From assembly GCF_003100395.1 (NCBI RefSeq), contig NZ_CP029210.1, forward strand, positions 3,224,001 through 3,288,000: a stretch of DNA of 64,000 nucleotides, read 5' to 3'. The notes under the pieces are model-generated. The model made no database searches and was not told the DNA's origin. It was given only the letters and a program-made list of their open reading frames with translations. Within the stretch, counting starts at the first letter, position 1; every line of letters starts with the position of its first letter. Source of the DNA: Aquabacterium olei. Lineage in GTDB: Bacteria > Pseudomonadota > Gammaproteobacteria > Burkholderiales > Burkholderiaceae_C. The position numbers and the translations under genes are program-made. This document shows, piece by piece, positions 45,840-63,609 of the stretch.

Positions 45840-46039
45840 GGCGCAGACTCCACGTGAGCCGGGCCTTCGGCGGCCTCGTCCTGCCAGCTCGCCCGCACGG
45901 CATTGCGCAGGCGGCGATCGGCGTGGCGCAACAGCACCGCCTCGATGCCCAGTGCCAGCGCCACCGCGCCAAACGATCCCCACACATACCGCCCGTAGCC
46001 ACCCATGTCGATGAAGGCATTCCAGCTCGTCCAGTTCAT
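45836..46039 (-). CDS. ccmD: Haem exporter subunit CcmD
   Basis: A 67-residue single-span membrane protein ([20 protein letters not shown], helix to about residue 37, then a charged tail). CcmD helps to release holo-CcmE from CcmABC. It overlaps ccmC and ccmE by four bases on each side. It lies inside a much longer open frame, but only this part fits the family. Confidence 0.85.
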
Positions 46040-46839: not shown

Positions 46840-46869
46840 TGCAGATCCTTGTCGATCACGGTGTCCGCC

Positions 46870-48257: not shown

Positions 48258-49505
48258 TCAGCCCTTGCGAGCGGACTTCGGCCCGTCCTTGGGCGCTTCC
48301 TTGGGTGCCTCGCTGGCGCGCACACGCTCGCCGGCCTGGACGGTATCGGGCGGGTTCAGCACCACCGCCTCGTCTGCCGACAGACCCTCGATGACCTCGA
48401 CAGAGCGCCCCAGGTCGCGCCCCAACTTCACGGGTCTCAGGCTCAATGACTGATCCTCGTTCAGCACCGCCACCCGGGGTCCGTCCTGACGGAATTGCAC
48501 CGCGGTGGGCGGCACAAACAGCGTCGGGCCAGCCCCGGCCAGCTCGAGGCCGACCTCGACGTACCCGCCCGGCTTGAGCTGGCCGCCCGCATTCGGGACT
48601 TCCACTTCCACCTGGGCGGAGCGCGTGGCCGCGTCGATCCCCCCTGCCACCCGGCGCACCATGCCTGCCAGCTTCAGCGGAGGCCGCTCGAGCAGGCGGA
48701 GCGATACGGACTGCCCCACCTTCACGCCATCAAGGTGACTTTGAGGCACCGCCACGGTCAGCCGCAGCACGTCATCCTGTGCCAGGTAGTAGAGCTCGCG
48801 GTTCGCGGTCGCACTGCCTGCCGCCACCAACGCTCCGACCTCGACATGGCGGCGCACCACCACGGCATCGAACGGCGCGACGATGCGACCGAATTGCTGC
48901 AGGGCTTCCAGCCGCTGGACACTGGCACGGGCCGCAGCCAGATCGGCCTGTGCAGCCTGAAAGGCGGACCGGCGCTCGTCGAGTTCCTGCTGCGAGACGG
49001 CGTTGCTGCCCCGCAGGCTCTCCCATCGCGCCAGCGACGTCCGGGTCAGCTCCAGGCGCGCCTGAATCTGCTGCAGGGTGGCCCGGGTCTGGGCCAGGTC
49101 CTGATCGACCTCCGGCGTGTCGATCAGGGCCAGCACCTCGCCCTGCTTCACGCGGTCGCCGATGTCCTTCTTCCACGCCTTCACATACCCGTTGGTGCGC
49201 GCGTGGATCGCGGCCTCCTGCCGCCCTCTCAGCGTCGCGGGCAGGGTCAGCGTGCGTTCGCCGCGCGCCACCTCGGGCCGGATGAACAGCACGGAGCGCA
49301 CGGCTGCGGCCTCGGTGCCCGCGCGAACCGCCCTCGCCTGCTCGGCATTCACCCAGGTGCGTGCGCCACCGGCCAGGAGCAACACAGCCAGCATCCCCCA
49401 GCCCCACGGCGCCACGCGGGCTCGGGGCACCTGGCGTGTTTCGTCGGCTGGGACAGGCTCGGGCTCCTCGACCGGAAAGCCTTCTGGATTCAGTTGTGCG
49501 TTCAT
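48258..49505 (-). CDS. RND efflux periplasmic adaptor subunit
   Basis: A 415-residue membrane-fusion protein. One N-terminal helix (about residues 34-51) anchors it. A lipoyl-like half (HARTNGYVKAWKKDIGDRVKQG) comes next, then a long helical hairpin (about residues 135-200, QTRATLQQIQARLELTRTSL and ASVQRLEALQQFG), then beta-barrel and membrane-proximal domains. The C-terminus is Lys/Pro/Ala-rich. It overlaps the pump gene by four bases and lies downstream of it, the reverse of the common adaptor-first order. No outer-membrane factor gene is present. Confidence 0.92.
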   Translation of the reverse strand: MNAQLNPEGFPVEEPEPVPADETRQVPRARVAPWGWGMLAVLLLAGGARTWVNAEQARAVRAGTEAAAVRSVLFIRPEVARGERTLTLPATLRGRQEAAIHARTNGYVKAWKKDIGDRVKQGEVLALIDTPEVDQDLAQTRATLQQIQARLELTRTSLARWESLRGSNAVSQQELDERRSAFQAAQADLAAARASVQRLEALQQFGRIVAPFDAVVVRRHVEVGALVAAGSATANRELYYLAQDDVLRLTVAVPQSHLDGVKVGQSVSLRLLERPPLKLAGMVRRVAGGIDAATRSAQVEVEVPNAGGQLKPGGYVEVGLELAGAGPTLFVPPTAVQFRQDGPRVAVLNEDQSLSLRPVKLGRDLGRSVEVIEGLSADEAVVLNPPDTVQAGERVRASEAPKEAPKDGPKSARKG

Positions 49506-52500
49506 GACAGCGGGAAGGGTTGGGCAACAGCCAGGCCATTGCGGCGGTGCGCACGGGCCCGTCGCCGTGCATGGACGCCGGCGAACACCAGCGGAACAAA
49601 GGCGAGGGTGGACAGGGTGGCCGCCGCAAGCCCGCCGATCACGGCCCGCCCGAGCGGGGCGTTCTGCTCGCCGCCCTCCCCCTGGCCCAGGGCCATCGGC
49701 ACCATGCCGATCACCATGGCAAGCGCGGTCATCAGCACCGGACGCAGGCGCGTGGCACCGGCCTCGCGGGCCGCGGTGATGGCATCCGCACCTTCGGCCA
49801 GGCGCTCACGTGCAAAGGACACCACCAGGATGCTGTTCGCCGTGGCGACGCCCACGGTCATGATCGCCCCGGTCAGCGCGGGCACCGACAGAGGCGTTCC
49901 CGTCAGGTAAAGCATCCAGGCGATGCCCGCCAGGGCAGCCGGCAGGCCACTGAGGATGACAGCGGGATCCAGCCAGGACTGGAAGTGCACCACCAGCAGC
50001 AGGTAAACCAGCAGCACGGCCACCAGCAGACCCGCAGCCAGCGCGTTGTAGGCGGTCTTCAGGGTCTCGACCTGACCCCGCACCGTGATCTCCGAGCCGC
50101 GCGGCAACTGGCCGCGCACGCCATCGATCAACGCGGCAATCTCGGCATAGGTGCTGCCCAGATCACGGCCATCGACGCTGACATGGATGTCGAGCACGTT
50201 GGCAATGTTGTAGTGCGAGACGTTGCCTTGCAGGCTGGTCGGCCTCACCTGCACCACGCTGCCCAACAATTGCGGCTCGCGCGCGTCCCCTCCACCCGAC
50301 CCGTTGATCGGCAGACTGAGCATGGCCCCCAGACTGTCCACCTGCTGTTGCGGCACCTGCACAGCCACGTTGTACACGGTGCCATTGACTGGGTTGAGCC
50401 AGTAAGTGGGCGCGGTTTGAAAGCTCGAACTCATGGACACCATGACGTTCTGCGCCACATCTCTCGCCACCAGGCCCGTCTGGGCCAGCGCAGCGCGGTC
50501 CATCTCGAGCGCCAGCGCGCGCCGGTTGAAGCGCTGATGCAAGGTGACATCGACAGCGCCCGGCACCTTGCGGATCCGGTTGATCAACGTCGTCGCCACA
50601 GCAAGGTTCTCTTCGGTCTTGTTGCCCTGGATCTGGATGTCGATGGGCGCACTCAGCCCGAAGTTGAGCGTCTGGCTGACCATGTCGGCCGGCTGGAAGT
50701 AGAACTCGTTGCCGGGAAACCGCTGGGGCAGCGTGCGCCTCAGCTCGCGGATGTAGCCGGCGGTCTTGCGCAGCCCCGGCTGCAGGCTCACGAGGATCTC
50801 GGCGTCGCTGCTGTCGAACGTGCCGTTGTTGCTGTAGAGCGTGTTGAACGGCGAATAGGGCCCGCCCACGATGTCGACCAGACCCAGCAGTTCCTCGCGG
50901 GGGATCACCTGCCGGATGTGGGCCTCGACCTGGTCGATGAAGGCCGGCATTTCTTCGATGCGTGTGCCGAGCGGCGCCCGCACGTGCAACCGGATCTGAG
51001 ACGCATCGACGACCGGAAAGAAGTCGCGGCCGAGCACGGCAAACAGGCCGCACGAGGCCAGGGCCAGGGTGAGGAAGGCCGCACCGTACCGAAGGCGGTG
51101 GTGCAGCAGTCCCGCCAGTTGAGCCGCATAGGCGCGCCGCGCCCGCTCGAACGCGGCTTCAAAGCCATGGTGGACCGACAGCAAGACCGTGCCAAGACGG
51201 CCAGGCGGCAGGGCACGCTCCCGGTGGCGCATCAGGTACATCACCAGGGTGGGCACCAGCGTGCGCGACAGCACATAGGAAGCCAACATGGCGAACACCA
51301 CCGCCAGCGCCAACGGTTTGAACAGTTGCCCTGCCACGCCGGGCAGGAACAGCATCGGCACGAAGACGATGCAGATGCACAGTGTCGCCACCAGGGCCGG
51401 CCCGGCAATCTCGGCCGCGCCGTCGAGGATGGCCGCCTGCGGGGCCTTGCCCATGTGCAGGTGCCGCTCGACGTTCTCGATCTCCACGGTGGCGTCGTCC
51501 ACCAGGATGCCGACCGCCAGCGCGAGCCCGCCGAGCGTCATGATGTTGATGGTCTCGCCGATCAGGTGCAGCACGATCAGCGACACGAGGATGGACAGCG
51601 GGATGGACACCGCAATGATGGCGGTGCTGCGCCAGTTGCCCAGAAAGAGCAGCAGCAGGGCGGCCGTGAGGCAGCCGGCGATGAGCGCTTCGTGCAGCAC
51701 CGACTGGATGGCCGCGTCCACGAACACCGACTGGTCAGCGAGCGGTGTCACCGTGATGTCCTCGGGCAGGCTCTGCAGATAACGTGGCAACTCCTCCCGA
51801 ATCTGGCGAATGATGTCCAGCGTCGAGGCCGAACCGTTCTTCAGCACCGTCATCAGCAGGCCGCGTTCGCCATCGCGGCGCACCACGTTGGTCTGCGGCT
51901 GGAAACCATCCTTGACCTGGGCCACGTCGCGCACGAACACGGTGTTGCCATTGACGGTGGTGATCGGGATGTCGCCCAGCGCCTGCATGCTCGATGGCGA
52001 GCCATTGAGCTGGACGGCCACCTCCTGGCTGCCGATCCGCGCCGAGCCGGAAGGCAGGGTCAGGTTCTGCACGCTCAGTGCGTTGACCACGTCCACCGCC
52101 GTGAGCCCGCGCGCCACCAGAGCCGGCCCATTGAGGTCGATCGACACCTGGCGGAAGCGCCCGCCGTACGGCGCCGTCACGGCCACGCCGGGCACGGTGA
52201 TGAGCCTGGTTCGCAGGACGTTGAAGGCCTGCTCGTTGAGCTCCTGTTCGCTGCGAACGGGGCTGCTGATGCCGAGCTGCAGGATCGGCAGGTCGGTCGC
52301 GCTGTACTTGATGATCGTCGGCGGCGTGGCCCCTGCCGGCAGCGAGCGCAAGGCAGCCTGCGTGCTGGACACCACCTGCGCAATGGCCGTGGCCTGGTCG
52401 ACCTGCGGCTGGAAGAACACCTTGATGACACCGAGACCGGCCATGGTCTGGGACTCGGTGTGCGCCATGTCGCCGACCGAGTTGGCCAGGTTGCGCTCGA

Positions 52501-52699
52501 TCGGCGTGATGATGCGGTCGGTCATCTCCTTCGCGTTGAGCCCGTTGTAGCTCATCAGAATGGCCACGACGGGCACGTCGATCTTGGGAAAGACATCGAC
52601 GGGCGCCTTGCGCAGCAGCAGCGGCGCGGCCAGCACAATGAGCAGCGCACCGACGAGGAAGGTATAGGGGCGGCGCAGCGCGAGTCGGACGATCCACAT
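49502..52699 (-). CDS. RND efflux transporter permease (AcrB/MdtB-like)
   Basis: A 1065-residue proton-driven inner-membrane pump. Twelve helices with two large periplasmic loops are expected. The helix-4 acidic pair is in LAVGILVDDATVEIENVERH (about residue 405), and PVDVFPKIDVPVVAI, GAAEIAGPALVATLCICIVF and a late TLSTLAFVPLVFA are typical HAE1 stretches. Substrates cannot be told. A 10-base-stem hairpin separates it from the cytochrome operon upstream, so it may have its own promoter or receive read-through. Confidence 0.93.
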   Translation of the reverse strand: MWIVRLALRRPYTFLVGALLIVLAAPLLLRKAPVDVFPKIDVPVVAILMSYNGLNAKEMTDRIITPIERNLANSVGDMAHTESQTMAGLGVIKVFFQPQVDQATAIAQVVSSTQAALRSLPAGATPPTIIKYSATDLPILQLGISSPVRSEQELNEQAFNVLRTRLITVPGVAVTAPYGGRFRQVSIDLNGPALVARGLTAVDVVNALSVQNLTLPSGSARIGSQEVAVQLNGSPSSMQALGDIPITTVNGNTVFVRDVAQVKDGFQPQTNVVRRDGERGLLMTVLKNGSASTLDIIRQIREELPRYLQSLPEDITVTPLADQSVFVDAAIQSVLHEALIAGCLTAALLLLFLGNWRSTAIIAVSIPLSILVSLIVLHLIGETINIMTLGGLALAVGILVDDATVEIENVERHLHMGKAPQAAILDGAAEIAGPALVATLCICIVFVPMLFLPGVAGQLFKPLALAVVFAMLASYVLSRTLVPTLVMYLMRHRERALPPGRLGTVLLSVHHGFEAAFERARRAYAAQLAGLLHHRLRYGAAFLTLALASCGLFAVLGRDFFPVVDASQIRLHVRAPLGTRIEEMPAFIDQVEAHIRQVIPREELLGLVDIVGGPYSPFNTLYSNNGTFDSSDAEILVSLQPGLRKTAGYIRELRRTLPQRFPGNEFYFQPADMVSQTLNFGLSAPIDIQIQGNKTEENLAVATTLINRIRKVPGAVDVTLHQRFNRRALALEMDRAALAQTGLVARDVAQNVMVSMSSSFQTAPTYWLNPVNGTVYNVAVQVPQQQVDSLGAMLSLPINGSGGGDAREPQLLGSVVQVRPTSLQGNVSHYNIANVLDIHVSVDGRDLGSTYAEIAALIDGVRGQLPRGSEITVRGQVETLKTAYNALAAGLLVAVLLVYLLLVVHFQSWLDPAVILSGLPAALAGIAWMLYLTGTPLSVPALTGAIMTVGVATANSILVVSFARERLAEGADAITAAREAGATRLRPVLMTALAMVIGMVPMALGQGEGGEQNAPLGRAVIGGLAAATLSTLAFVPLVFAGVHARRRARAHRRNGLAVAQPFPLS

Positions 52700-52776: not shown

Positions 52777-53508
52777 TTACCTAGCGGCAAAGCAGTAGAA
52801 GTAGCCGGCCCCGCCGGTGCTCACCAGCTTCGCCTGACTGCAACCGCGGCTCGCATGGGCCGAGTTCCACGACAGCGCCGTGTGCACGCCCCCGGTGCGA
52901 TCGAAGTGCCCGACCTGGACGGCCCCGTCCTCCGCACTGCTCGTGTAGTTCTTGCAGGTGCGGTCCGAGGTGTCGTTGACGAAGGCCCGCCCGTCCGGAT
53001 GAGAACCGGTCAGGATGTCGTGCTCGTTCGGCGTGTCGCCAGCCCGCTTCACCGGCTGGCCCTGCTCGGTCAGTGCCGTCGACCAGTTGATGGCGTTGCC
53101 GATGCGCGCGTCCTCCAGGTTGTCACCGTGCAGGTGTGCCACGTCGCGGGCGATCAGTGCGCCCTTCACGTTGAACCACGGACCGGTGCCGATGCGGTCA
53201 CGCGCATGGACGGCCGGCTTGCCGTCCCACGACTGCGTGCTCAGGTAGGCCCGCCAGGTGCGGTTACCGGCACCGACCGCGGCCGCAAGCTTCTGGCAGT
53301 GCGCATCCGCGCCAGCCAGGCCGCCCAGATCCGCACCCTTGCCGGAGCCGACGCTGGTGACAAAGAAGCTGAAGGGCCCGACCTCCCGGTTGGCCGGCTG
53401 CGGGGCAGCGGCCGGCGCTGCGGCAGTCTGGGATTGCACGGCGGCGCTCGTCAGCATGAGCAGGCCCACGAACGACGCTGCGGCGATGGACTGAATGGTG
53501 TGCTTCAT
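52777..53508 (-). CDS. Exported DUF1554-like (lectin-type) protein
   Basis: A 243-residue secreted protein. The signal peptide covers about residues 1-27, cut near AVQSQTAAA. The mature part has FFVTSVGSGKGADLGGLAGA, then DAHCQKLAAAVGAGNRTWRA with the first Cys, further Cys in RTCKNYTSS and GCSQAKLV, and a C-terminal GAGYFYCFAAR. The layout resembles the DUF1554 or endostatin/C-type-lectin-like fold that I recall from leptospiral lipoproteins. Four cysteines could form two disulfides. It is the last gene of the cytochrome/DUF1501 operon, five bases after cytochrome c'. A binding or recognition role is a guess. Confidence 0.65.
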   Translation of the reverse strand: MKHTIQSIAAASFVGLLMLTSAAVQSQTAAAPAAAPQPANREVGPFSFFVTSVGSGKGADLGGLAGADAHCQKLAAAVGAGNRTWRAYLSTQSWDGKPAVHARDRIGTGPWFNVKGALIARDVAHLHGDNLEDARIGNAINWSTALTEQGQPVKRAGDTPNEHDILTGSHPDGRAFVNDTSDRTCKNYTSSAEDGAVQVGHFDRTGGVHTALSWNSAHASRGCSQAKLVSTGGAGYFYCFAAR

Positions 53509-53513
53509 GGTGT

Positions 53514-54002
53514 TCAGTCCTTCTTGCGGTAGTCGTCGTGGCAGGCCTTGCAGGTGCCTTGCAGCTTCGCCAGCTGGGCCTTCACTTGCCCCACATCGCC
53601 TGCGGCCGCCACACGGGACAGCTCATTGGCTTCCTTGTTGAACGATGCGGCCACCTCGCCGGCCTTCTTGTCGGTGAACAGCTCGGGTTTGACGGCCGTC
53701 TCCCGCCACCCCTTGCCGGTTTCCGTGCCCGGCGCATAGAGCGCGCCCAGTCCGGAGTTGGCCAGGGCGGCAATCGCGTTGGCCGCCTTGATCACGTCGT
53801 CCTTGTTGTACGTGCCGTCCACGTTGGCCTTCACGCGGCCAGTGTTCCAGGCAATCACCTGGTAGGCCGACTGACGCCACTTGATCAGCTGCTCGGGTTT
53901 GGGGGCCTGCTGCGCGTGGGCGGCCTGGGCGGCCAGCAGGGCGGCCAGCACGGTGGACGCCGTGGCGCCCAGAACGGCGGCAAAGCGCTTGCGGTTCTTC
54001 AT
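53514..54002 (-). CDS. Cytochrome c' (c-prime)
   Basis: A 162-residue periplasmic cytochrome. Signal peptide about residues 1-30 (ends AAHAQ). The mature chain is a four-helix bundle with the haem motif CKACHDDYRKKD at the extreme C-terminus, which defines class II cytochromes c'. The family binds NO or CO at a five-coordinate haem and is linked with NO protection. Here it sits 42 bases after a peroxiredoxin gene, in an operon of exported redox proteins. Maturation requires the Ccm system encoded 6 kb away. Confidence 0.9.
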   Translation of the reverse strand: MKNRKRFAAVLGATASTVLAALLAAQAAHAQQAPKPEQLIKWRQSAYQVIAWNTGRVKANVDGTYNKDDVIKAANAIAALANSGLGALYAPGTETGKGWRETAVKPELFTDKKAGEVAASFNKEANELSRVAAAGDVGQVKAQLAKLQGTCKACHDDYRKKD

Positions 54003-54044
54003 GGTCTTCCTTGTGATGGGTTGGAGATGGGATGAAAGGGATGC

Positions 54045-54644
54045 TCAGGACTTGCGCCCTTTGGTGGCAGCCAGTTGCTGGACGATTTCCAGTGCCTTGC
54101 GCACGTTCTGGTCTGGCGACACGCCACCGACCGTGGCGGCCACGCGGCCATCCGGCGTGACGACGAAGGTCGTGCGTTCGGTGCGCGCATGGTCGATCTC
54201 GATGCCGCGGGTGTCCTTGCGCCCGGCGGGCACTTCGGTGACCGGCAGATCGAACGCACGGGCGACCTTGCCGTCCGCATCCGACGCCACCGGGATCTTT
54301 CCAGCACAGAACTGGGGATCGGCCGAGAAATCGTTCAGGCGCGCGATGCTGTCGAGCGACACGCCGACGATCGACGCACCCGCCGCGGCGAACTTCTCGA
54401 CGTTCTGGGCAAACAGGTGAGCCTGCACGTTGCAGCCATTGGTGAAGGCCGAAGGATAGAAATAGACGACGACCGGTCCTTTGCGCAACGCGTCCTTGAG
54501 CGCGTAGTGAAAGGGCTTTCCCGCTTGTGACGCCTGAAGGCGGAAGTCAGGGGCGATGTCCCCCTCCTTGAGCGCGGCGTGGGCGGGCCACGCGAGCCAG
54601 GCGGCAGAAAGGGCCAGCACGGCGCCGGCGACAGATTTGTTCAT
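54045..54644 (-). CDS. Exported peroxiredoxin (AhpC/TSA family)
   Basis: A 199-residue thiol peroxidase with a signal peptide (about residues 1-23, ending WPAHA). The peroxidatic Cys is in YPSAFTNGCNVQAH, which fits the PxxxTxxC pattern, and a second Cys lies in DPQFCAGKIPV. Periplasmic peroxiredoxins are less common than cytosolic ones. Its place between a dihaem cytochrome (four-base overlap) and cytochrome c' suggests peroxide handling tied to the redox chemistry of this operon. Confidence 0.88.
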   Translation of the reverse strand: MNKSVAGAVLALSAAWLAWPAHAALKEGDIAPDFRLQASQAGKPFHYALKDALRKGPVVVYFYPSAFTNGCNVQAHLFAQNVEKFAAAGASIVGVSLDSIARLNDFSADPQFCAGKIPVASDADGKVARAFDLPVTEVPAGRKDTRGIEIDHARTERTTFVVTPDGRVAATVGGVSPDQNVRKALEIVQQLAATKGRKS

Positions 54645-55381
54645 GGTGTGGTGTTTCCTCGTTGATCGGAATGGGCTGACAGCCCCGACAGGTGAGAGGC
54701 CAGGGCCTCGATCTCGGTGTCGGTCAGGGGGCGGATTGCATCGCTCATCACGCCGCCCGGACTGTTACGGCGATCGCCGCTACGCCAGTTGCGTAACTGC
54801 TGATCGAGATAGCGCCACTCCTGCCCGCCAAGGACGGGCGACAGCGGCTGAGCTCGCTGCCCCTCGCCTCTTGGGCCGTGGCACGCTGCGCAGGCAGGTA
54901 CGCCCCGAACTGAATCGCCCTGTTCGTACAGCCGGCGTCCGAGCTCGCTGACGTCGCGGGCGTCCCCCCGCATGGACGGCAGCGACGCGAAGTACGCAGC
55001 AATGTCGGCCGCGTCCTCGTCGGTGATGCTGCGAGCCATGATGGCCATCTGGTCGTGCTTGCGCGCACCCGAACGGAAGTCCTGAATCTGCTTGACGATG
55101 TAGGCGGCCTGCTGCCCGGCCAGCCGCGCGAACTTGCCTTCGGGCCCGTTGCTGTGGCCCTGGCCCTGCCCGTCTGCGCCATGGCATTCGATGCAGCGCT
55201 CGGCGTCCGCCTTGCCTTGCCCTAGCGCTGCGTCACCGGGTCGCGGCATGGTGGGCGAAGCCTGGCTGGGTCCACCCTTGCGGCCCTGTGTACCGGCTGC
55301 CAGCGAGCCCAGCGGGATGGCAGCCAGCAGACACAGCAACACGCCGATGCAGGCGTTCTTTGAGGACTTCCGCTGGCCCAT
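54641..55381 (-). CDS. Dihaem cytochrome c (c4-like)
   Basis: A 246-residue exported protein starting MGQRKSSKNACIGVLLCLLA, with the signal segment cleaved near GSLAA. Two similar c-type domains follow: AERCIECHGADGQGQGHSN (about residue 60) and PACAACHGPRGEGQ (about residue 160), each with a downstream Met-containing segment (DQMAIMA and GGVMSDAI). This duplicated layout matches cytochrome c4-type electron carriers. The start overlaps the upstream monohaem gene by one base. It could pass electrons from the DUF1549/1553 protein to an oxidase. Confidence 0.88.
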   Translation of the reverse strand: MGQRKSSKNACIGVLLCLLAAIPLGSLAAGTQGRKGGPSQASPTMPRPGDAALGQGKADAERCIECHGADGQGQGHSNGPEGKFARLAGQQAAYIVKQIQDFRSGARKHDQMAIMARSITDEDAADIAAYFASLPSMRGDARDVSELGRRLYEQGDSVRGVPACAACHGPRGEGQRAQPLSPVLGGQEWRYLDQQLRNWRSGDRRNSPGGVMSDAIRPLTDTEIEALASHLSGLSAHSDQRGNTTP

Positions 55382-55767
55382 CAGGACTGCTTGTAGAACG
55401 TGTGGCAGGCGCGGCAGGTGCGCGACAGCTCTGTGGCAGAGCCCGAGGCGCCCCCAAAGTCCTGCGCGCCCACCTGCTGCTGGATCTTCTCGGTCAGCTG
55501 CAGGCTTTTGCGCGAGAGCGCCAGGCCGTCCGGTGCTTCCGGCTTGGCCAGGTAGTGCTTCTCCACCGTCTGGAACAGGGTGTGCAGTTCCTCGGCATCC
55601 TTCGCAGAGGCACCGGCATCGCGCAGCGCGATGTTCGATGCCAGGCTCTTGTTGGCGTCCTCCACGTTCTGCATCAGGTCCATGTCCAGCGCGGCATCGG
55701 CCGCGCGGGCCAGCCCGATTGCGAAGCACAGCACTCCCAGCGGGATCAGGGCAGACAGCTTGCGCAT
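55381..55767 (-). CDS. Small monohaem cytochrome, C-terminal CxxCH
   Basis: A 128-residue exported protein (signal about residues 1-22, ending GLARA). It is mostly helical with a single haem motif CRACHTFYKQS at the very end, a class II placement like cytochrome c' although the rest of the chain is shorter and different. No methionine ligand region is obvious. It overlaps both neighbours by one base (TGATG), so it is tightly coupled to the DUF1501 gene and the dihaem cytochrome. Confidence 0.8.
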   Translation of the reverse strand: MRKLSALIPLGVLCFAIGLARAADAALDMDLMQNVEDANKSLASNIALRDAGASAKDAEELHTLFQTVEKHYLAKPEAPDGLALSRKSLQLTEKIQQQVGAQDFGGASGSATELSRTCRACHTFYKQS

Positions 55768-57218
55768 CAGGCCAGGATGTCCTTGATGACCTTGCCGTAC
55801 ACCACCGTGGGGCGCTCGGATCGGCCGTTGTGGATGAAGGTCGTCTTCAGGTGGTCGAGCCCCATCAGGTGCAGCACGGTGGCATGCAGGTCATAGGTGT
55901 CGACCGACTTCTCCTTGTCGGCCACCTGCAGCCCGACGTCATCGGTCTCGCCGTAGGTGAAGCCCGCCTTGAGGCCCCCTCCGGCCAGCCACTGTGTATA
56001 GCCCCAGGGGTTGTGATCGCGGCCGCTCCCGCTTTCGCCCCAAGAGGTCCGGCCGAACTCCGAGGTCCACACCACCAGCGTGGTGTCCAGCAGACCGCGC
56101 TCCTTCAGGTCGTGCAGCAGGCCGGCAATCGGCTTGTCGACCATGCGCGCCATCACGGCGTGGTTCTGATCCAGCTCGCTGTGTGCGTCCCAGCTCTGGC
56201 GGTCGATGTCCGCGCCTTCAGGGAAGCCGGAGACCACCTGCACGAAGCGCACGCCGTTCTCCACCAGGCGGCGGGCCCGCAACAGCACCTCGCCATAACT
56301 CTGGCTGGTCTTGTCATTCAAGCCATACAGCTCCTTGGTGGCGGCCGTTTCCTTGCTGATGTCCACGGCCTTCGGGGCGGCCGTCTGCATGCGGTCGGCC
56401 AGCTCGTATGACTGCAGGCGGGCCCGCAGCTCGGTGTCGCTCGGGTACCGATCGGCGCCGATGTTGTTCAGACGCTTGAGCAGGTCCAGCGAAGCGCGCT
56501 GCTGCGCGGGGCTGCGCAGGTCGGGTCGGTTCAGGTAGAGGATGGGGTTCTCGCCCGGTCGGAAGGCCGTGCCCTGGTACACCGCCGGCAGGAAGCCAGA
56601 GGCCCAGTTCACCGAGCCGGCCGACGGCTCGCGGTCGCCGTTGTAGAGCACCACGTACGGCGGCAGATCCGGGTTGGCCGAGCCCAGTGCATACGTGATC
56701 CAGGCACCCAGCGACGGCCGCCCCGGGTTGAGGTCACCCGTGTTGAGCTTCAGGATCGAGATATCGTGCGTGGCGCCCACGGTCGTGCTCGACTTGATGA
56801 AGGTGAGCTTGTCGGCGTGCTGAGCCAGGTTGGGCAGCAGGTTCGAGAACCAGGCGCCGCTCTCCCCATACTGCTTCCAGGTGCGCTCCTTCGACACGAA
56901 GAGCTTGCCCACCCCGCCTTGCGTGCTGGTCTTGATGCCCTTGAGGAAGGAAGCCGGCACCGGCTCGCCAGCCAGGCGCTGCAACTCCGGCTTGTAGTCG
57001 TACAGATCGAGCGTCGAGGGCGCGCCGTTCTGATGCAGCCAGATCACCGACTTGATCTTGCCCGGAAAGTGCGGCGACTTCAGTGCCAGCGGGTCGGCCA
57101 GCTCGGCCGCGGTGGCTGCACCGATGTAGCCGATCCCGGGAAGAAAGCCGCCGAGGGCTGCACCACCGAGGCCCAGGCCGGCCTGGCGCAGGAAGGCGCG
57201 ACGTTGTTCGTTGTTCAT
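55767..57218 (-). CDS. DUF1501 protein (alkaline-phosphatase/sulfatase-like), Tat-exported
   Basis: A 483-residue protein with a twin-arginine signal (NNEQRRAFLRQAGLGLGG). The fold family is DUF1501, related to the alkaline phosphatase/sulfatase superfamily. Visible motifs are SVIWLHQNGAPSTLDLYDYK, STTVGATHDISI, QSWDAHSELDQNH, LVVWTSEFGRTSWGESGSG plus RDHNPWGYTQWLAGGGLK, and DTYDLHATVLHLMGLDH. The Asp, Glu and His of the last three are the likely metal ligands. Such proteins are abundant in Planctomycetes and nearly always paired with DUF1549/DUF1553 cytochromes, as here (48 bases downstream of one). The reaction is not known; hydrolysis of a phospho- or sulfo-ester is suggested by fold. Confidence 0.85.
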   Translation of the reverse strand: MNNEQRRAFLRQAGLGLGGAALGGFLPGIGYIGAATAAELADPLALKSPHFPGKIKSVIWLHQNGAPSTLDLYDYKPELQRLAGEPVPASFLKGIKTSTQGGVGKLFVSKERTWKQYGESGAWFSNLLPNLAQHADKLTFIKSSTTVGATHDISILKLNTGDLNPGRPSLGAWITYALGSANPDLPPYVVLYNGDREPSAGSVNWASGFLPAVYQGTAFRPGENPILYLNRPDLRSPAQQRASLDLLKRLNNIGADRYPSDTELRARLQSYELADRMQTAAPKAVDISKETAATKELYGLNDKTSQSYGEVLLRARRLVENGVRFVQVVSGFPEGADIDRQSWDAHSELDQNHAVMARMVDKPIAGLLHDLKERGLLDTTLVVWTSEFGRTSWGESGSGRDHNPWGYTQWLAGGGLKAGFTYGETDDVGLQVADKEKSVDTYDLHATVLHLMGLDHLKTTFIHNGRSERPTVVYGKVIKDILA

Positions 57219-57266
57219 GCTCTGATTCCTTGTCTGGATGAGGGTTCGTCAGCCGGATGGGTCCGG

Positions 57267-59630
57267 TCAGAAGCGATAGGCAAAGTCGTTGGCGTTCGCG
57301 ACGGTGTGCACAAGGTCCACGAAGGCCGCTGACTTGATGGGGTCGTAGCCCTTGGTGTTCTTCAGGCCCCACGGCACTGCCACCTCGAACTTGCCCTCGG
57401 CGACCTTCTGACGGATGGCAATCTGCTGATCGGCGAGGAACTGCTTGAGCGCAGCGCGCTCGGTCTTGTTGGGCTCCCGGGCAAACAGGATCTGGTAGAC
57501 CCGATTGAGCTGTGCATCCTCGTTCGCCCCGGCCTCGTTGATCACGCGGCCCGCCAACGCCTGGCTCCAGTCAAAGACAATCTCGCTGTTGAACAGGGTC
57601 AGGGCCTGCAGCGGCGTGGTCGTCACATCCCGCTTGTGATGCGGGTTGTTGGGGTTGGCCGGATCGAAGTTCTGCGTGATCGGGTACGGGAAGCTGCGAC
57701 GCGTGAACACATAGAGGCTGCGGCGGTGCCAGTCCTCCTGGTCATCGGACACGGTCCATGCACGGTTGCCCGCGAAATCCTGCGACTTGCCGACGTCGTT
57801 GCCACGCTTGAGCACCGGCGGGAACACGGACGGTCCTCCCACCTTGTCGACCAGCAGGCCCGACGCGTACAGCAACGAGTCGCGGATCTCTTCGGCTTCC
57901 AGGCGCTTGCGCGGATAGACAGCCAAGAGCTTGTTCTCGGGGTCGAGCTTCGCGACGTCCTTGCGCTCGTCAGACGACTGGCGATAGGTGGACGACAACA
58001 GGATCTCGCGGTGCAGCTTCTTGATGCTCCAGCCGTCGCCGACGAACTTCGAGGCCAGGTGGTCCAGCAGCTCAGGGTGGGTCGGCTTCTGGCCCGCACG
58101 ACCGAAGTCGGCCACCGTGGGCACGATGCCCTTGTCGAAGTACTGGGCCCAGACCCGGTTCACGTAGACGCGTGCCGTGAGCGGGTTGTTGTCGGCGCTC
58201 AACCATTGAGCCAGCACCGCGCGGCGACCGGAAGAATGGGCCAGCGGCGTTATGGGCACTTCACCCTTGCCGCCCCACAGCGCCGGGATGCCAGGGTTCA
58301 CGGCCTCCAGTGGCTTCTCGTGGATGCCTGTGAAGCGCACGTGGGTGGGCGGCACCTCCTTGCTGGTCAGCTCCAGCGCGGTCGTCAGGGTGCCACTGCC
58401 CTTGGACGGCTTGAGCTTGTCGAACTGCTTGAGCTGCTCCTGCAGGCCCTTGTACTCCTTCCACAGGGCAACGTGGTCCTCCTTGTAGTCCGCACGCGTC
58501 TTCTCTTCTGCGGTGTCACGCAGGTAGCTGACGATCTCGTTGTCGGACGCCACGGCCTGCTTGCGCCAGTTCACCCACTTGTCGAGTGGCGTCCACTCGG
58601 CTTCGGGCTTGAAGATGGCGGCACGGCTGTCATCGAGGTAGCGCTCGTTGTAGTACTTGCGACCAGCCTCGCGCACCTGATCGAGGATGGCCTTCTGACG
58701 CGCCCGGATGTCCTTCGTGGCCTCGTTGTAGACGGCCAGCTGCTTCTGATAGGCCCGGTCGAACTCGGTTTCCGTGCCCTTGGCCAGCGGTGCCTTCTCG
58801 TTGAAGGCCGTGTTGGCGAAGAAGGCCTGCAGCTGGAAGTACTCCTTCTGGCTGACGCGGTCCGACTTGTGGTTGTGGCACCGGGCGCAACCGATGGTCT
58901 GCGCCAGGAAGACCTCGCCGACCAGATCCGTCATGTCGGTCTCGATCTGGTACTTCCGCTGAATGAGGTCACGCGAGTTGTAGTTGTCGGGGTAGCCCGC
59001 CAGAAAGCCTGTTGCAATGCGGGCCTGCTGGTCCTCCGGCCACAGCTCGTCACCGGCCAGCTGCTCCTGGATGAAGCGGTTGTAGGGCTTGTCGCTGTTG
59101 AAGGCGTTGATGACGTAGTCGCGATAGCGCCAGTTGTTGGGCCGCGTGTTGTCGTTCTGAAAGCCGGTGCTGTCCGCGTAGCGGGCCAGGTCCAGCCAAC
59201 GACGAGCCTGGCGTTCCCCGAAGTGATGGGATGCCAGCAGACGGTCCACCAGCTTCTCGTAAGCCTGAGGCGACTTGTCGTTGACGAAGGCCTTGACCTC
59301 CTCCGGCGTGGGCAGCAAGCCCCATGCATCGAGCGTGGCACGGCGGATGAAGGTGGCCCGATCGGCTTCGGGCGATGGCTTGAGCCCGGCGGTTTCCTGC
59401 TGGGCGAGCACAAAGGCATCGATGGGTGAACGCACCCACCGCGCGTTCTGCACGGTCGGCACGGAAGGCGTCTTGAGAGGCTGATACGGGCTCCAGCGAC
59501 CGGTGGCCGCGGCCGGTTTCGCGGCGCTGGCCGACACCGGATTCGTGCCCGCCGAGGGCGTGGGCTCGGCCGCCTGCAAGGAAACAGCCGCGAGCCCGAC
59601 TGCGGCGGAGACAAGCCATCTGTTATTCAT
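57267..59630 (-). CDS. DUF1549/DUF1553 (PSCyt2-PSD1) cytochrome c protein
   Basis: A 787-residue exported protein; the start ATG at 59630 follows GGAGGCTCTGGAA. Signal peptide about residues 1-21. DUF1549 covers about residues 60-270, with FIRRATLDAWGLLPTPEEV, QARRWLDLARYADSTGFQND and the haem motif GCARCHNHKSDRVSQ near residue 248. A charged helical middle follows. DUF1553 spans the C-terminal half, with NPLTARVYVNRVWAQYFDKG, SSTYRQSSDE and TTTPLQALTLFNS. This domain pair was defined in Planctomycetes and its function is unknown. It heads a seven-gene operon behind a sigma-54-type promoter. Confidence 0.88.
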   Translation of the reverse strand: MNNRWLVSAAVGLAAVSLQAAEPTPSAGTNPVSASAAKPAAATGRWSPYQPLKTPSVPTVQNARWVRSPIDAFVLAQQETAGLKPSPEADRATFIRRATLDAWGLLPTPEEVKAFVNDKSPQAYEKLVDRLLASHHFGERQARRWLDLARYADSTGFQNDNTRPNNWRYRDYVINAFNSDKPYNRFIQEQLAGDELWPEDQQARIATGFLAGYPDNYNSRDLIQRKYQIETDMTDLVGEVFLAQTIGCARCHNHKSDRVSQKEYFQLQAFFANTAFNEKAPLAKGTETEFDRAYQKQLAVYNEATKDIRARQKAILDQVREAGRKYYNERYLDDSRAAIFKPEAEWTPLDKWVNWRKQAVASDNEIVSYLRDTAEEKTRADYKEDHVALWKEYKGLQEQLKQFDKLKPSKGSGTLTTALELTSKEVPPTHVRFTGIHEKPLEAVNPGIPALWGGKGEVPITPLAHSSGRRAVLAQWLSADNNPLTARVYVNRVWAQYFDKGIVPTVADFGRAGQKPTHPELLDHLASKFVGDGWSIKKLHREILLSSTYRQSSDERKDVAKLDPENKLLAVYPRKRLEAEEIRDSLLYASGLLVDKVGGPSVFPPVLKRGNDVGKSQDFAGNRAWTVSDDQEDWHRRSLYVFTRRSFPYPITQNFDPANPNNPHHKRDVTTTPLQALTLFNSEIVFDWSQALAGRVINEAGANEDAQLNRVYQILFAREPNKTERAALKQFLADQQIAIRQKVAEGKFEVAVPWGLKNTKGYDPIKSAAFVDLVHTVANANDFAYRF

Positions 59631-59774
59631 TTCCAGAGCCTCCATTTGCGATACGCGGAAAATTCATTTGCTTGCTTTCCTTGGATATATGAAACCACAA
59701 CGAAATACCTGAAAGGGCCTCGTTGCCGACGTTCCGGGAAAGGTGCCAGGGGACAGCGAGGGATGGCGGCATAG

Positions 59775-59790
59775 CGCAACTTGCGTGCCA
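59775..59790 (-). promoter_or_regulatory. Sigma-54 promoter of the DUF1553/DUF1501/cytochrome operon
   Basis: On the minus strand TGGCACG-CAAG-TTGCG matches the RpoN consensus TGGCACG-N4-TTGCW through the TTGC; only the final base differs. The GG (-24) and GC (-12) are separated by ten bases. The predicted transcript begins near 59764 and leaves a leader of about 130 bases before the DUF1553 start. Confidence 0.85.
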
Positions 59791-59862: not shown

Positions 59863-59941
59863 CTATGCTTATCCGAACCGCAACGAAAGGAGGGCCACCT
59901 CGCCCACCCGATTCCATGCGGTGATTCCTCAACACCCCGCT

Positions 59942-59962
59942 GCACGAAAACCAACAACGTGC
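59942..59962. promoter_or_regulatory. Candidate enhancer dyad (UAS)
   Basis: GCACG-N11-CGTGC is a 21-base inverted repeat roughly 60-75 bases upstream of the plus-strand sigma-54 promoter. A sigma-54 activator needs such an upstream site, but this one matches no specific activator consensus that I know; the spacing is longer than for NtrC. Confidence 0.35.
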
Positions 59963-60017
59963 TTCACAGAAATCAACACAAGGCGCCTCAGATACTGCCT
60001 CGACATCAAAAAAAGGC

Positions 60018-60033
60018 TGGCACAAACCCTGCG
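60018..60033 (+). promoter_or_regulatory. Sigma-54 promoter of the porin/ABC-transporter operon
   Basis: TGGCAC-AAACC-CTGCG carries GG at 60019-60020 and GC at 60031-60032 with the required ten bases between them; the -12 block reads CTGC rather than TTGC. The transcript would start near 60044, about 40 bases before the porin GTG. Confidence 0.78.
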
Positions 60034-60082: not shown

Positions 60083-61576
60083 GTGTCCTTTCAGAAAAAA
60101 TCTCAGGTGGCCCTCGCAGCCTTGCTCGCGCTGTCCGGCGCCGCCGTCCACGCGCAGTCCAACGCCAGCGAGGTCCAGTCCCTGAAGAACACGGTCGAAG
60201 AACTGCGGCGCCAGGTGGAAGAGCTGCGCGGGCTGGTCCGGTCGCAGGCAGCCGCCCCCGCCACGGCGAGCCCGGTCGAAGGCGAATCACAGGAAAGCAT
60301 CGACGCCCGGACCGCGGCATCCAAGGCCGACATCCAGGGCCTCCGCACCGACCTCGAGAACTACAAGTACGACCAGTCCCGCCTGCAGGAACGCAACATC
60401 CCCAGCGTCACGCGCAACACCCGCCTGGGCGGCACCGTCACGCTGGGCTATGAAACCCGCAACCCGGCTTATGCCGCGGGTGACTCGCAGACCACCGCCG
60501 CCAGCACGGCGAACCCCGCCGAGCCGCGTGACAACGGGTTCCGGGCGCCAACCGCCACGCTGAACCTGACCGGCAACCTCTACCGCGACTACGCCGAGGG
60601 CCGCAACCTCACCTACCGGTTGGCCCTCAACATCGGCACCACCGGCACCAACGCGACGAGCAATTCGCAGGTCAACCTGACGGACGCCTACATCCGCTAC
60701 AGCTACGAGCCCGCGACCGGCAACCTCGAGGACCGCCTCGGCACCATCACGCTGGGTCAGCAGCCGGTGCCCTTCGGCCTCGACGCGCCCGCGCTCGACC
60801 CCGAAGTGCGCGCCGTGATCAACAGCGCACTGTTCGTCAATGGACTGGACCTGGGCACGCGCCAGATCGGTCTGCTCGTGCAGGGTGACTTCGACCCCTA
60901 CGTCGACTTCACCAACAACTACCGCGCCCCCCTGCTGGGCTACGCGCTGGGCTACTTCAACGGCAACGGCCCCAACAAGAACGACAACAACGCCTCGCGC
61001 GACTGGTTGGCGCGCCTGGTCTTCACCTTGCCGGTCGACTACACGAGCTGGTTCCGTCAGCTGCAGATCGGCGCGAGCTACTACAAGCGTTCACCCACCG
61101 TGGCACGCACCAGCACGGCCACCACCGGCTTCACCGGCGAGAACGACATCACCGGCATCGACGTGAACTGGACGCACCTGCCCTTCTCGATCTCGTACGA
61201 ATGGGCCCGCGGCAAGGGGCAGATCACGCCCACCGCCGTCGATCCGGATGGCAACAAGCGGGGTGTGGGCCAGTACATCAACCTGGGCTACACGTGGGGC
61301 GAGCAGTTCCTCAACAGCTCGAAGCAGCAAGGCAAGTTCGATGACTACTGGCCGCAGTCCTATCAGGCCTTCGTGCGCTACGACACCTTCGATCCGAACG
61401 ACAACGCCCGCGTGGTCAATGACAAGCAGACCCGCACCACGCTGGGCCTGAACGTCTTCTTCGCCGAGACGACCCGCTTCCAGATCAACTACTTCAAGGA
61501 TCGCAACGAAGCGGGCACCAGCGCCCAGCCCAAGCGCGCCACCGGCCTGCAGGCGCAGTTCGTCGCCGGCTTCTGA
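60083..61576 (+). CDS. OprO/OprP-like porin with N-terminal coiled coil
   Basis: A 497-residue outer-membrane protein. The start is GTG at 60083 behind AGGAG. Signal peptide about residues 1-24 (cut after AVHAQ). A short coiled coil (about residues 30-52, SLKNTVEELRRQVEELRGLV) precedes the barrel, as in trimeric anion-selective porins of the phosphate/pyrophosphate type. LGTITLGQQPVPFGLDAPA and a terminal GLQAQFVAGF are consistent with that family. Its link to an ABC importer suggests that it admits the anionic substrate of that importer rather than phosphate. Confidence 0.85.
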   Translation: MSFQKKSQVALAALLALSGAAVHAQSNASEVQSLKNTVEELRRQVEELRGLVRSQAAAPATASPVEGESQESIDARTAASKADIQGLRTDLENYKYDQSRLQERNIPSVTRNTRLGGTVTLGYETRNPAYAAGDSQTTAASTANPAEPRDNGFRAPTATLNLTGNLYRDYAEGRNLTYRLALNIGTTGTNATSNSQVNLTDAYIRYSYEPATGNLEDRLGTITLGQQPVPFGLDAPALDPEVRAVINSALFVNGLDLGTRQIGLLVQGDFDPYVDFTNNYRAPLLGYALGYFNGNGPNKNDNNASRDWLARLVFTLPVDYTSWFRQLQIGASYYKRSPTVARTSTATTGFTGENDITGIDVNWTHLPFSISYEWARGKGQITPTAVDPDGNKRGVGQYINLGYTWGEQFLNSSKQQGKFDDYWPQSYQAFVRYDTFDPNDNARVVNDKQTRTTLGLNVFFAETTRFQINYFKDRNEAGTSAQPKRATGLQAQFVAGF

Positions 61577-61608: not shown

Positions 61609-62706
61609 ATGAAACGTCGCACCTTCAGCGCCGCACTGGCCTCGGGCCTGGCCGCACCGGCCCTCATCGGCCTGACCACCGGCACCGCCCGGGCGCAATC
61701 CGGCGGCAAGCCCGCCACCATCCGCATCGGCTTCCCCGGCGCCGGCACGGCAGGCCGGCCCCTGCCCTCTTCCGGCTTCACGGCCAACGTCGTGTTCCGC
61801 GGCGAACTGGAGCAGGAGTTCGCAGCCGACGGCATCAAGATCGAATGGAAGTACTACGTCGGCGCCGGGCCGGCACTCAACGAGGCCTATGCCAACGGCC
61901 TGCTCGACTTCTGCTTCGGCCACGGCGACCTGCCGTTGATCGTGGGCCGCTCCACCGGGCTCAAGCACAAGATCCTGCTGTCGTCCGGTCGCGGCGGCGA
62001 CACCTACTTCGTGGTGCCTGCGTCCTCCAGCGCGAAGAGCATCAAGGACCTGGAGGGCAAGATCCTGTCGTGCCAGAAGGGCACCGCCGGGCAACTGCGG
62101 CTCTACCGCTTCCTGGCCCACCACGGCTACAAGGAACCGGAGAAGCAGTTCCGCATCATCAGCCAGATCACCGACGACCGTCGCGCCTCGCTGGCCACCG
62201 GCAACATCGCCGGCGCACTCGACACGCCCTTTGGCCTGGAGGCCCGCGGCATCGCCCGCACGCTGGACCAGATCTTCGACGACCCCTTCCAGAACGTGCC
62301 GGGCTCGGTGTGGGTGGGCGAGGCCTTCGAGCAGCGCCATCCCGACCTGGTGCAGCGCATCGTCAACCGACTGGTCAAGACCGCGCACTGGAGTTCGCAG
62401 GAAGCCAACCGGGAAACGCAGTACCAGCTGTGGACCCGCGCAGGCGACAACACCTACATCGACAACAAGCGGGTGTGGGACCGCACAAAGGACCTGCGCA
62501 ACCGGATCACCCCCCTGCTGGACGAGTACTACACCGCCTCCATCCAGCGCTCGGTGAACGAGATCAAGGGCCACCGCCTGTCGCGCCGCGACGTGAGCCT
62601 GGACGGCTGGATCGAGCCCAAGTACCTGAACCACGCGCTGCGCGAACAGAAGCTCGAGACGTACTGGCCCACCCAGGACGCCAACGGCAAGTTCATCCGC
62701 ACCTGA
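61609..62706 (+). CDS. ABC transporter substrate-binding protein, SsuA/NMT1-like
   Basis: A 365-residue periplasmic binding protein. MKRRTFSAALASGLAAPALIG is a Tat- or Sec-type signal ending near ARAQS. The mature part has the type II binding fold of the sulfonate/nitrate/taurine group: RIGFPGAG, VGAGPALNEAYANGLLDFCF, then GHGDLPLIVGRSTGL and LEGKILSCQKGTAGQLRLY. It is larger than SsuA or TauA (about 320), with extra sequence at the C-terminus. Substrate could be an organosulfonate, sulfate ester, nitrate or a related N/S compound. Confidence 0.85.
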   Translation: MKRRTFSAALASGLAAPALIGLTTGTARAQSGGKPATIRIGFPGAGTAGRPLPSSGFTANVVFRGELEQEFAADGIKIEWKYYVGAGPALNEAYANGLLDFCFGHGDLPLIVGRSTGLKHKILLSSGRGGDTYFVVPASSSAKSIKDLEGKILSCQKGTAGQLRLYRFLAHHGYKEPEKQFRIISQITDDRRASLATGNIAGALDTPFGLEARGIARTLDQIFDDPFQNVPGSVWVGEAFEQRHPDLVQRIVNRLVKTAHWSSQEANRETQYQLWTRAGDNTYIDNKRVWDRTKDLRNRITPLLDEYYTASIQRSVNEIKGHRLSRRDVSLDGWIEPKYLNHALREQKLETYWPTQDANGKFIRT

Positions 62707-62733: not shown

Positions 62734-63609
62734 ATGGCCGTGTCCACCGACGACCTTGCAATCTTTCCGCCGGAGGGAGCACTGCCCGCCACACCGGCAT
62801 CGACGCGCCGGTCACCGTCGCGTGTCGCGGGGGGGTTGGCCTGGCTGGCCAGCACCCTCGGTACCGTGGCGCTCGGCCTCATCCTGCCGGCCGCGCTGTT
62901 CGCCCTGTGGTGGACGGCCGCCGACCGCCACTGGATCGCCGAGCAGATCCTGCCGTCGCCGGCGTTCGTGTGGGAATCGCTCGGCATCGTGTGGGACAGC
63001 GGCGAGCTGCTGGGCCACGTCGGCCACAGCGCCCGACGTGCCGCGCTGAGCCTGTTGATCGGTGGCGGGGCCGGGCTGGTGCTGGGCTTTGCCATGGGCC
63101 TGTCCGAGCGGATCAGGGCCTATGTGTGGCCCAGCTTCAATGCACTCGCGCAGCTGCCGGTGCTCGGCTGGATCCCGCTGCTCATCATCTTCATCGGCAT
63201 CGAAGAAGGCCTGAAGCTGACGGCCATCTCGATCGCGGTGGTCGTGCCGGTCGCGCTCAGCACGCTCAATGGCATCGCCAACATTCCGGCGGCGCTGCTC
63301 GAGGTCGGGCGCGTCTACCGCTTCAGCGCATGGCAGACCCTGGGTCGCATCGTGCTGCCGGCCACCACGCCAGCCTTGTTCACGGGCTTGCGTCAGGGCG
63401 TGATGCAGGCATGGCTCACCACGATCTTCGTCGAGCTGTTGTCCTCCAGCGAGGGGCTGGGGTTCTTCATGTCCTACAGCCGCTCGCTCAGCCAGATCGA
63501 CATGGTGATCGTCTCCATGCTGGCCATCGGCGTGCTGGGCCTCGCCATCGAACTCACCTTGCGGCTGGTCGAATCCCGGCTGCAAGGCTGGCGCCGCAAC
63601 GCCTTCTGA
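62734..63609 (+). CDS. ABC transporter permease, SsuC-like
   Basis: A 291-residue permease with about six membrane helices (the first at about residues 38-61). The domain motif ALLEVGRVYRFSAWQTLGRIVLP (in parts: ALLEVGRVYRF and TLGRIVLPATTP) is the coupling loop for the ATPase. PSFNALAQLPVLGWIPLLII is typical of the sulfonate/nitrate permease family. It lies 27 bases after the binding protein and 26 before a second, similar permease. Confidence 0.88.
   Translation: MAVSTDDLAIFPPEGALPATPASTRRSPSRVAGGLAWLASTLGTVALGLILPAALFALWWTAADRHWIAEQILPSPAFVWESLGIVWDSGELLGHVGHSARRAALSLLIGGGAGLVLGFAMGLSERIRAYVWPSFNALAQLPVLGWIPLLIIFIGIEEGLKLTAISIAVVVPVALSTLNGIANIPAALLEVGRVYRFSAWQTLGRIVLPATTPALFTGLRQGVMQAWLTTIFVELLSSSEGLGFFMSYSRSLSQIDMVIVSMLAIGVLGLAIELTLRLVESRLQGWRRNAF

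What the first reader, a model, noticed from the sequence alone, without database searches (positions are those of the whole stretch)
52777..59630. Seven-gene exported redox operon built around DUF1549/DUF1553 and DUF1501
The set DUF1549/1553 cytochrome, DUF1501, monohaem cytochrome, dihaem cytochrome, peroxiredoxin, cytochrome c' and DUF1554-like protein is tightly spaced, mostly overlapping or within 50 bases. Every product carries an export signal, and five CxxCH sites are present. The first two families are hallmarks of Planctomycetes with no known reaction. Here they come with dedicated electron carriers and peroxide/NO protection, which suggests an oxidative step that makes reactive by-products. 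I know of no described pathway with this composition.
Basis: partly seen in the sequence, partly recalled or inferred. Interest (0 to 1): 0.85.

Follow-up and report, generated by a model that had tools for sequence, protein, structure and literature searches.

The report
Sulfur-starvation periplasmic cytochrome gene module
A conserved set of exported haem proteins and enzymes of unknown function in water and soil bacteria sits among sulfur-uptake genes and looks as if it is switched on when sulfur is scarce, giving a first testable role for two large mystery protein families.

Summary
In detail: seven exported genes (DUF1549/DUF1553, DUF1501, two cytochromes, peroxiredoxin, cytochrome c', protein G) lie tightly spaced at 52777-59645 with five CxxCH motifs. 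Adjacency is not chance: in 43 related loci DUF1553, DUF1501 and peroxiredoxin occur in 43, the monohaem cytochrome in 42, the dihaem in 39, cytochrome c' in 36.

The main correction: the operon belongs to sulfur nutrition. CysB, a sulfate importer and O-acetylhomoserine sulfhydrylase lie on one side; an SsuA-like importer, sulfate-binding protein and a regulator 55% identical to an annotated SfnR on the other. Core sulfur genes are near 15 of 35 module loci (0 of 40 control regions) and within about 30 kb in 10 of 10 genomes read further. A sigma54 promoter precedes the operon in 28 of 33 loci (controls 17 of 637). In the genus the regulator, and nearly always the importer, track the operon.

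DUF1501 models as an alkaline-phosphatase/sulfatase fold but lacks the formylglycine motif. I read the module as a sigma54-controlled, cytochrome-linked periplasmic system that frees sulfur from an organosulfur compound under sulfur limitation. Substrate, chemistry and induction are unproven.

The parts
57267..59645 (-). A: DUF1549 (PSCyt2, one haem c motif CARCH at residue 253) + DUF1553 (PSD1) protein, 792 aa
   Evidence: only PSD1 match in the genome
55767..57218 (-). B: DUF1501 protein, twin-arginine pattern by eye, modelled alkaline-phosphatase-superfamily fold, no Cys
55381..55767 (-). C: monohaem cytochrome (C-terminal CRACH), no Pfam match
54641..55381 (-). D: dihaem cytochrome c
54045..54644 (-). 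E: exported peroxiredoxin with PxxxTxxC motif
53514..54002 (-). F: cytochrome c'
52777..53508 (-). G: exported protein weakly similar to the LenA/LenB endostatin-like family; no Pfam match
49502..52699 (-). RND efflux pump; a homologue lies in 12 of the 43 related loci
48258..49505 (-). membrane fusion protein of the RND pump
41592..48185 (-). cytochrome c maturation set ccmABCDEFGH/I; the genome has a second ccmF elsewhere (47% identical)
   Evidence: CcmD and the CcmH/CycH TPR protein by Pfam, the rest by eye and homology
40616..41503 (-). YghX/dienelactone-hydrolase-like exported hydrolase (443 bits, curated cut-off 460); in relatives a homologue lies between E/D and F
39184..40470 (-). O-acetylhomoserine sulfhydrylase (sulfur assimilation)
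38267..39165 (+). YeeE/YedE-type pair, by eye (first protein: weak match to thiosulfate transporter TsuA)
34201..38058 (-). sulfate ABC importer: sulfate-binding protein (NCBIfam, over cut-off), two permeases and ATPase (by eye)
33229..34170 (-). CysB-family regulator (481 bits, cut-off 402)
59776..59790 (-). sigma54 -24/-12 promoter TGGCACGCAAGTTGC reading into A; the only 10/10 match in the window
60018..60032 (+). sigma54 -24/-12 promoter (9/10) reading into the porin
59919..59978 (.). candidate regulator sites: three half-sites (T/C)CAACA exactly 22 bp apart
60083..61576 (+). phosphate-selective-type porin (Porin_O_P)
61609..62706 (+). SsuA-like ABC substrate-binding protein (78.8 bits, curated cut-off 163.5)
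62734..63609 (+). ABC permease, Ssu/Tau/Sao type (below cut-offs)
63636..64000 (+). second ABC permease (continues to 64412; beyond the window follow ATPase 64461-65273, rhodanese-like protein 65309-65812, cytochrome b561 65823-66596, sulfate-binding protein 66693-67721, SfnR-like regulator 67888-69144 on -)

Best explanation
The operon is the enzymatic core of a sulfur-scavenging module. Under sulfur limitation an SfnR-like enhancer-binding protein with sigma54-RNA polymerase turns on divergent promoters. An organosulfur compound enters the periplasm through a porin or, in other lineages, a TonB receptor. There the haem-bearing DUF1549/1553 protein, with the alkaline-phosphatase-fold DUF1501 hydrolase, releases the sulfur as an anion. 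Electrons pass through the mono- and dihaem cytochromes c to cytochrome b561 or the respiratory chain. Lactonase-type hydrolases (SMP-30, YghX/DLH, metallo-beta-lactamase fold) handle the oxidised organic part, and the peroxiredoxin guards against peroxide. The sulfur anion is taken up by the SsuA-like, Sbp/CysTWA or YeeE/YedE importers for cysteine and methionine synthesis. Shown by sequence: gene content, conservation, co-occurrence, sigma54 promoter, sulfur neighbourhood, DUF1501 fold class (modest model). Inferred: induction by sulfur limitation, the reaction, the electron route and the roles of the hydrolases. The substrate is unknown; a sulfated or sulfonated sugar-like molecule is my guess, because relatives of the pair lie in polysaccharide-utilisation regions.
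Against: 20 of 35 loci show no core sulfur gene within about 10 kb, Massilia and Methylibium among them. No expression data. The SBP is below the SsuA cut-off, and no monooxygenase of the known organosulfur systems was recognised in the module (the genome has two Bac_luciferase genes elsewhere; TauD was not searched). The rhodanese-like protein has no Cys after residue 30 in 23 of 23 and no Pfam match, so it is no proof of sulfur chemistry. DUF1501-DUF1553 relatives in Saccharobesus and Catenovulum lie with glycoside hydrolases or a fucose permease, not with annotated sulfur genes. Three further regulator homologues (L074-L076) have, by eye, no sulfur gene beside them, and a regulator homologue occurs in 1 of 40 controls. 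The model of A has no known fold and low confidence. A scan of 10 genomes for paired regulator sites showed no wider sulfur regulon. Loci are related to each other, so Fisher values overstate independence; the sulfur queries were themselves taken from the window and module loci.
Confidence: 0.6

Rival explanations
1. A carbohydrate- or lactone-oxidising pathway for carbon: the DUF1549/1553 protein oxidises a sugar-like substrate with cytochrome c as acceptor, SMP-30/DLH open the lactone, and the sulfur genes are neighbours through regulation or island location only.
For: SMP-30 in 22 of 43 and DLH in 18 of 43 loci; relatives of the pair on plasmids of algal polysaccharide degraders lie beside GH88, GH43, GH115, GH98 or FucP genes; PSCyt genes in Verrucomicrobia linked to carbohydrate modules (PMC5615132, passages).
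Against: SfnR-like regulator, CysB, sulfate importers and encapsulin/cysteine-desulfurase genes recur in differing arrangements, core sulfur genes in 0 of 40 controls; I recognised no glycoside hydrolase among the module neighbours that I read by eye.
Confidence: 0.2
2. A periplasmic redox and peroxide/NO defence set that is induced by sulfur starvation because thiol and Fe-S supply fails; it does not process an organosulfur substrate.
For: Peroxiredoxin and cytochrome c' are conserved; sulfur starvation induces LsfA and Ohr in P. aeruginosa (PMC12581299, passages).
Against: Does not explain co-inheritance with the importer, the porin or TonB receptor, or the lactonase-type hydrolases.
Confidence: 0.1
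3. Uptake and redox processing of a metal chelate or haem-like ligand through the TonB receptor, with the sulfur genes coincidental.
For: TonB receptor in 16 of 43 loci; the one scanned has best hits, below cut-off, to siderophore and haem receptor models; TonB-ExbBD genes near in Massilia, Pelomonas and L021.
Against: Porin plus SsuA-like importer stand in its place in Aquabacterium and others; sulfur neighbourhood and SfnR-like regulator.
Confidence: 0.06
4. Chance adjacency of unrelated exported genes.
For: None found.
Against: A, B, E in 43 of 43 and C in 42 of 43 loci, among them Burkholderiales, Nitrosomonadales, Magnetospirillum and Cellvibrionaceae records.
Confidence: 0.02

Closest known systems
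Planctomycete-type PSCyt2/PSD1 (DUF1549/DUF1553) + DUF1501 gene pairs
   Same: Same two kinds of protein side by side; also on plasmids of Singulisphaera, Haliscomenobacter, Catenovulum and Saccharobesus
   Different: Here one copy in the genome, with a fixed set of cytochromes and peroxiredoxin and a sigma54/SfnR-like sulfur setting; in Verrucomicrobia PSCyt genes can be numerous and often neighbour sulfatase genes (PMC5615132, passages)
Sulfate-starvation-induced organosulfur systems (Ssu, Tau, Msu/Sfn; their enzymes recalled, in part from the PMC13352529 abstract)
   Same: SsuA/TauC-like importer, SfnR-like sigma54 regulator, CysB and sulfate-uptake neighbours, a peroxiredoxin
   Different: No flavin or iron/2-oxoglutarate monooxygenase recognised in the module; exported haem proteins instead
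Alkaline phosphatase superfamily (sulfatases, NPP, PafA)
   Same: DUF1501 model matches this fold; a profile search of PDB sequences lists four sulfatases first, weakly, E 0.009-0.23
   Different: No Cys and no formylglycine motif; the usual Asp-His ligand motif seems replaced by Glu-Phe (by eye; the usual motif is recalled)
Family 2A encapsulin-cysteine desulfurase operon
   Same: Encapsulin gene near the module in 4 of 43 loci (Derxia, Nitrosomonadales) and in further flanks of two genomes of the window's genus; upregulated in sulfur starvation in S. elongatus (PMC8346489, passages)
   Different: A neighbour, not a part; not recognised in the window

Membership tests
PSCyt2/PSD1 and DUF1501 families | Pfam PF07583, PF07587, PF07394 above curated cut-off | tested here: met
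   276.2, 308 and 441.5 bits against 29.8, 28.5 and 27
Alkaline phosphatase superfamily (protein B) | superfamily fold | tested here: met
Alkaline phosphatase superfamily (protein B) | complete two-metal ligand set and nucleophile | tested here: inconclusive
   alignment only: invariant D344, H346, E387, D401, H402; H445 is Q in some rows shown
Type I (formylglycine) sulfatase | C/S-x-P-x-R motif (recalled) | tested here: not met
   no C/S-x-P-x-R in B; CxPxR in 0 of 45 aligned sequences
SfnR (protein beyond the window, 67888-69144) | homology to annotated SfnR | tested here: met
   203 of 366 aligned positions identical (55%) to P0340, named SfnR by NCBI; the name is annotation, not experiment
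SfnR (protein beyond the window, 67888-69144) | control by CysB and of sulfur genes | not testable with these tools
   needs expression or binding data
Sigma54 regulon | -24/-12 promoter | tested here: met
   10/10 in window; at least 9/10 in 28 of 33 loci against 17 of 637 control genes
Sulfate-starvation-induced system | induction on sulfate limitation | not testable with these tools
   needs expression data
SsuABC importer | NCBIfam SsuA-family cut-off for the binding protein | tested here: not met
   78.8 bits, cut-off 163.5: SsuA-like, not filed as a member
Rhodanese (65309-65812) | catalytic cysteine | tested here: not met
   0 of 23 have a Cys after residue 30; no Pfam match

The most novel reading that the evidence does not exclude
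The DUF1549/1553-DUF1501 pair is a new class of cytochrome c-linked periplasmic desulfurising (or desulfating) enzyme that needs neither a flavin/2-oxoglutarate monooxygenase nor a formylglycine sulfatase: oxidation of a carbon next to the sulfur group labilises it, and the alkaline-phosphatase-fold partner and lactonases finish the release. The many copies in Planctomycetes and Verrucomicrobia would then do the same to sulfated glycans.
Probability: 0.2. Interest if true: 0.92.

Novelty: new variant of a known kind. Interest (0 to 1): 0.74.

Why it matters
DUF1501, DUF1549 and DUF1553 are large families (more than 7,700 proteins scored below E 1e-20 in each, both capped) that Pfam calls of unknown function; [quoted passage not shown] Here they stand in one copy in the genome, in a group with cultured members, with a recognisable promoter, regulator and a predicted inducing condition, so one growth-and-transcript experiment could give them a role. 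If right, it adds an exported haem-based route to bacterial sulfur scavenging.

Tried and rejected
NO or peroxide detoxification as the main role: kept only as a rival. Rhodanese-like protein as evidence for sulfur transfer: dropped, no Cys in 23 of 23. Protein A fold: AlphaFold model pLDDT 65.5 and no PDB match better than E 1.2; the alignment was shallow (41 homologues, 64-86% identical), so this says little. Sequence profile of A against PDB chains: one chance-level hit, E 0.26. Candidate regulator sites: dyads TGTTGA-N4-TCAACA about 22-23 bp apart lie upstream of A (30 hits within 600 nt in 33 loci, 26 elsewhere in the same loci), but the motif was derived from these sequences, and 13 of the 33 loci have none near A. 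The out-of-sample support is that all 10 'elsewhere' hits in Massilia L027, L030 and L033 fall in the two gaps before TonB-receptor and TonB genes. A pattern scan of 10 genomes gave 11 pairs against 0 for the reversed control; 4 lie in module loci, 7 elsewhere with no sulfur gene recognised by eye; the window's own genome gave none. Of nine SfnR-type loci of other genomes (L068-L076) one had a single weak hit. Sigma70 and terminator scans gave nothing clear of shuffles. Catabolic cluster at window 2411-14191 as the pathway for the organic half: similar genes in 1 of 20 flank regions (Derxia), 0 of 43 module loci, 0 of 40 controls, so left aside. Plasmid carriage of the module: 5 plasmid records match A, best 54.8% identical. 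A published function: none found (open-licence papers only).
Full report
What is there. The seven ORFs exist as described, on the minus strand, with overlaps or gaps of at most 48 nt, and carry five CxxCH motifs. Pfam confirms DUF1549 + DUF1553, DUF1501, cytochrome c domains in D, an AhpC/TSA peroxiredoxin and a cytochrome c'. The monohaem cytochrome C and protein G match no Pfam family; G has a weak LenA/LenB match, so 'DUF1554-like' is not confirmed.

Larger unit. Downstream on the same strand follow an RND pump and its fusion protein, a ccm cytochrome-maturation set, a YghX/dienelactone-hydrolase-like exported hydrolase and O-acetylhomoserine sulfhydrylase; beyond a YeeE/YedE-type pair on the other strand lie a sulfate ABC importer and a CysB-family regulator (genes without a named model were read by eye). 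The genome has another ccmF, 47% identical, so this ccm set is one of two. Divergently lie a porin, an SsuA-like binding protein, two permeases and, beyond the window, an ATPase, a rhodanese-like exported protein, cytochrome b561, a sulfate-binding protein and a sigma54 activator. 'Rhodanese-like' is my reading by eye; there is no Pfam match.

Conservation. One scan of the species-genome collection with six peptide patterns of A gave 35 named loci, from Aquabacterium, Massilia, Derxia, Methylibium, Pelomonas, Albitalea, Nitrosomonadales, Magnetospirillum and Cellvibrionaceae among others. In many relatives an exported SMP-30-type lactonase and/or the YghX-type hydrolase sits between E/D and F: SMP-30 in 22 of 43, DLH in 18 of 43 loci. 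A metallo-beta-lactamase-fold protein or homologue occurs at L024, L035 and L084. Outer-membrane entry: porin in 19 and SsuA-like SBP in 18 of 43, TonB receptor in 16 of 43 at 40% identity or more. PSD1 is rare around it: 2 of 398 Pseudomonadota genomes and 8 of 399 of the order (7 over cut-off), own genome included in both.

Sulfur link. With ten sulfur-assimilation queries, taken from the window and module loci, 15 of 35 module loci of at least 19 kb hold at least one; the eight shorter loci hold none; 0 of 40 control regions of 20 kb, from the window's genome and twelve other module-bearing genomes, do. Arrangements differ: Sbp/CysT/CysB; encapsulin 2A with cysteine-desulfurase cargo and CysE; CysK; OAH sulfhydrylase. 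NCBIfam confirms encapsulin and cargo in Derxia. Control positions are round coordinates that I chose, and many loci share ancestry, so I give no weight to exact p-values.

Regulation. The window's only 10/10 match to TGGCACN5TTGC ends 130 nt before A (59776-59790), and a 9/10 match 50 nt before the porin (60018-60032); the window has 8 matches of at least 9/10 in all, both strands. Sites of at least 9/10 stand before A in 28 of 33 loci, before the porin in 13 of 18 (at least 8/10 in 18 of 18), and in 17 of 637 control gene upstreams. The activator at 67888-69144 is 55% identical to a Pseudomonas protein named SfnR by NCBI. Among 299 Pseudomonadota genomes, matches at E 1e-110 or better outside the own genome are in six genomes of one family (at most six candidates scored per genome). 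Neighbours that I scanned in two of these loci are DszC/SfnB-like, below the curated cut-offs; the second copies (L074-L076) have no sulfur gene beside them by eye. SfnR is titled CysB-regulated and sigma54-dependent in the reference list of PMC13352529 (abstract, outline and passages seen). Upstream of the promoter are three half-sites 22 bp apart in the window and dyads 22-23 bp apart in several relatives.

Co-inheritance. In the 42 genomes of the genus, PSD1 is in 19. The SBP is in 17 of these and 0 of 23 others; the two PSD1 genomes without it are G021 and G025, whose contigs match the TonB-receptor loci L020 and L022 by length. The rhodanese-like protein is in 19 of 19 and 1 of 23, the activator in 19 of 19 and 1 of 23.

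Literature. Searches with DUF1549, DUF1553, DUF1501, PSCyt2 and sulfur terms found no function for this operon. PSCyt genes near sulfatase genes are reported in Verrucomicrobia (PMC5615132, passages). DUF1501-DUF1800 pairs near chitin synthases are another context (PMC5122149, passages). Peroxiredoxin LsfA is induced in sulfur starvation (PMC12581299, passages).

Noticed in passing
65309-65812 in extended numbering (L066:2309-2812): Exported rhodanese-like protein without any Cys after residue 30 in 23 of 23 homologues; co-occurs with PSD1 in 19 of 19 genus genomes. Role unknown, perhaps a scaffold or sensor.
   Followed up: partly
window 41592-48185: One of two cytochrome c maturation sets in the genome; in Derxia (L155) such a set follows the rhodanese-like gene and cytochrome b561 on one strand.
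   Followed up: partly
window 2411-14191: CoA-ligase/amidohydrolase/thiolase/enoyl-CoA hydratase catabolic cluster; four of nine query genes recur 10-30 kb from the module in Derxia (L156).
   Followed up: partly
L101, L102, L103 at position 1501: Paired TGTTGA site at the same place in three Massilia genomes, away from the module, near genes of no evident sulfur role.
   Followed up: no
L089:11977-12743 and L090:5518-6268: Two tandem copies of the Pfam-less monohaem cytochrome C where the dihaem cytochrome D is missing, suggesting that one replaces the other.
   Followed up: no
L051 (G017:C7:50453-52807): PSD1 reading frame in one genus member matched with one internal TAA.
   Followed up: no
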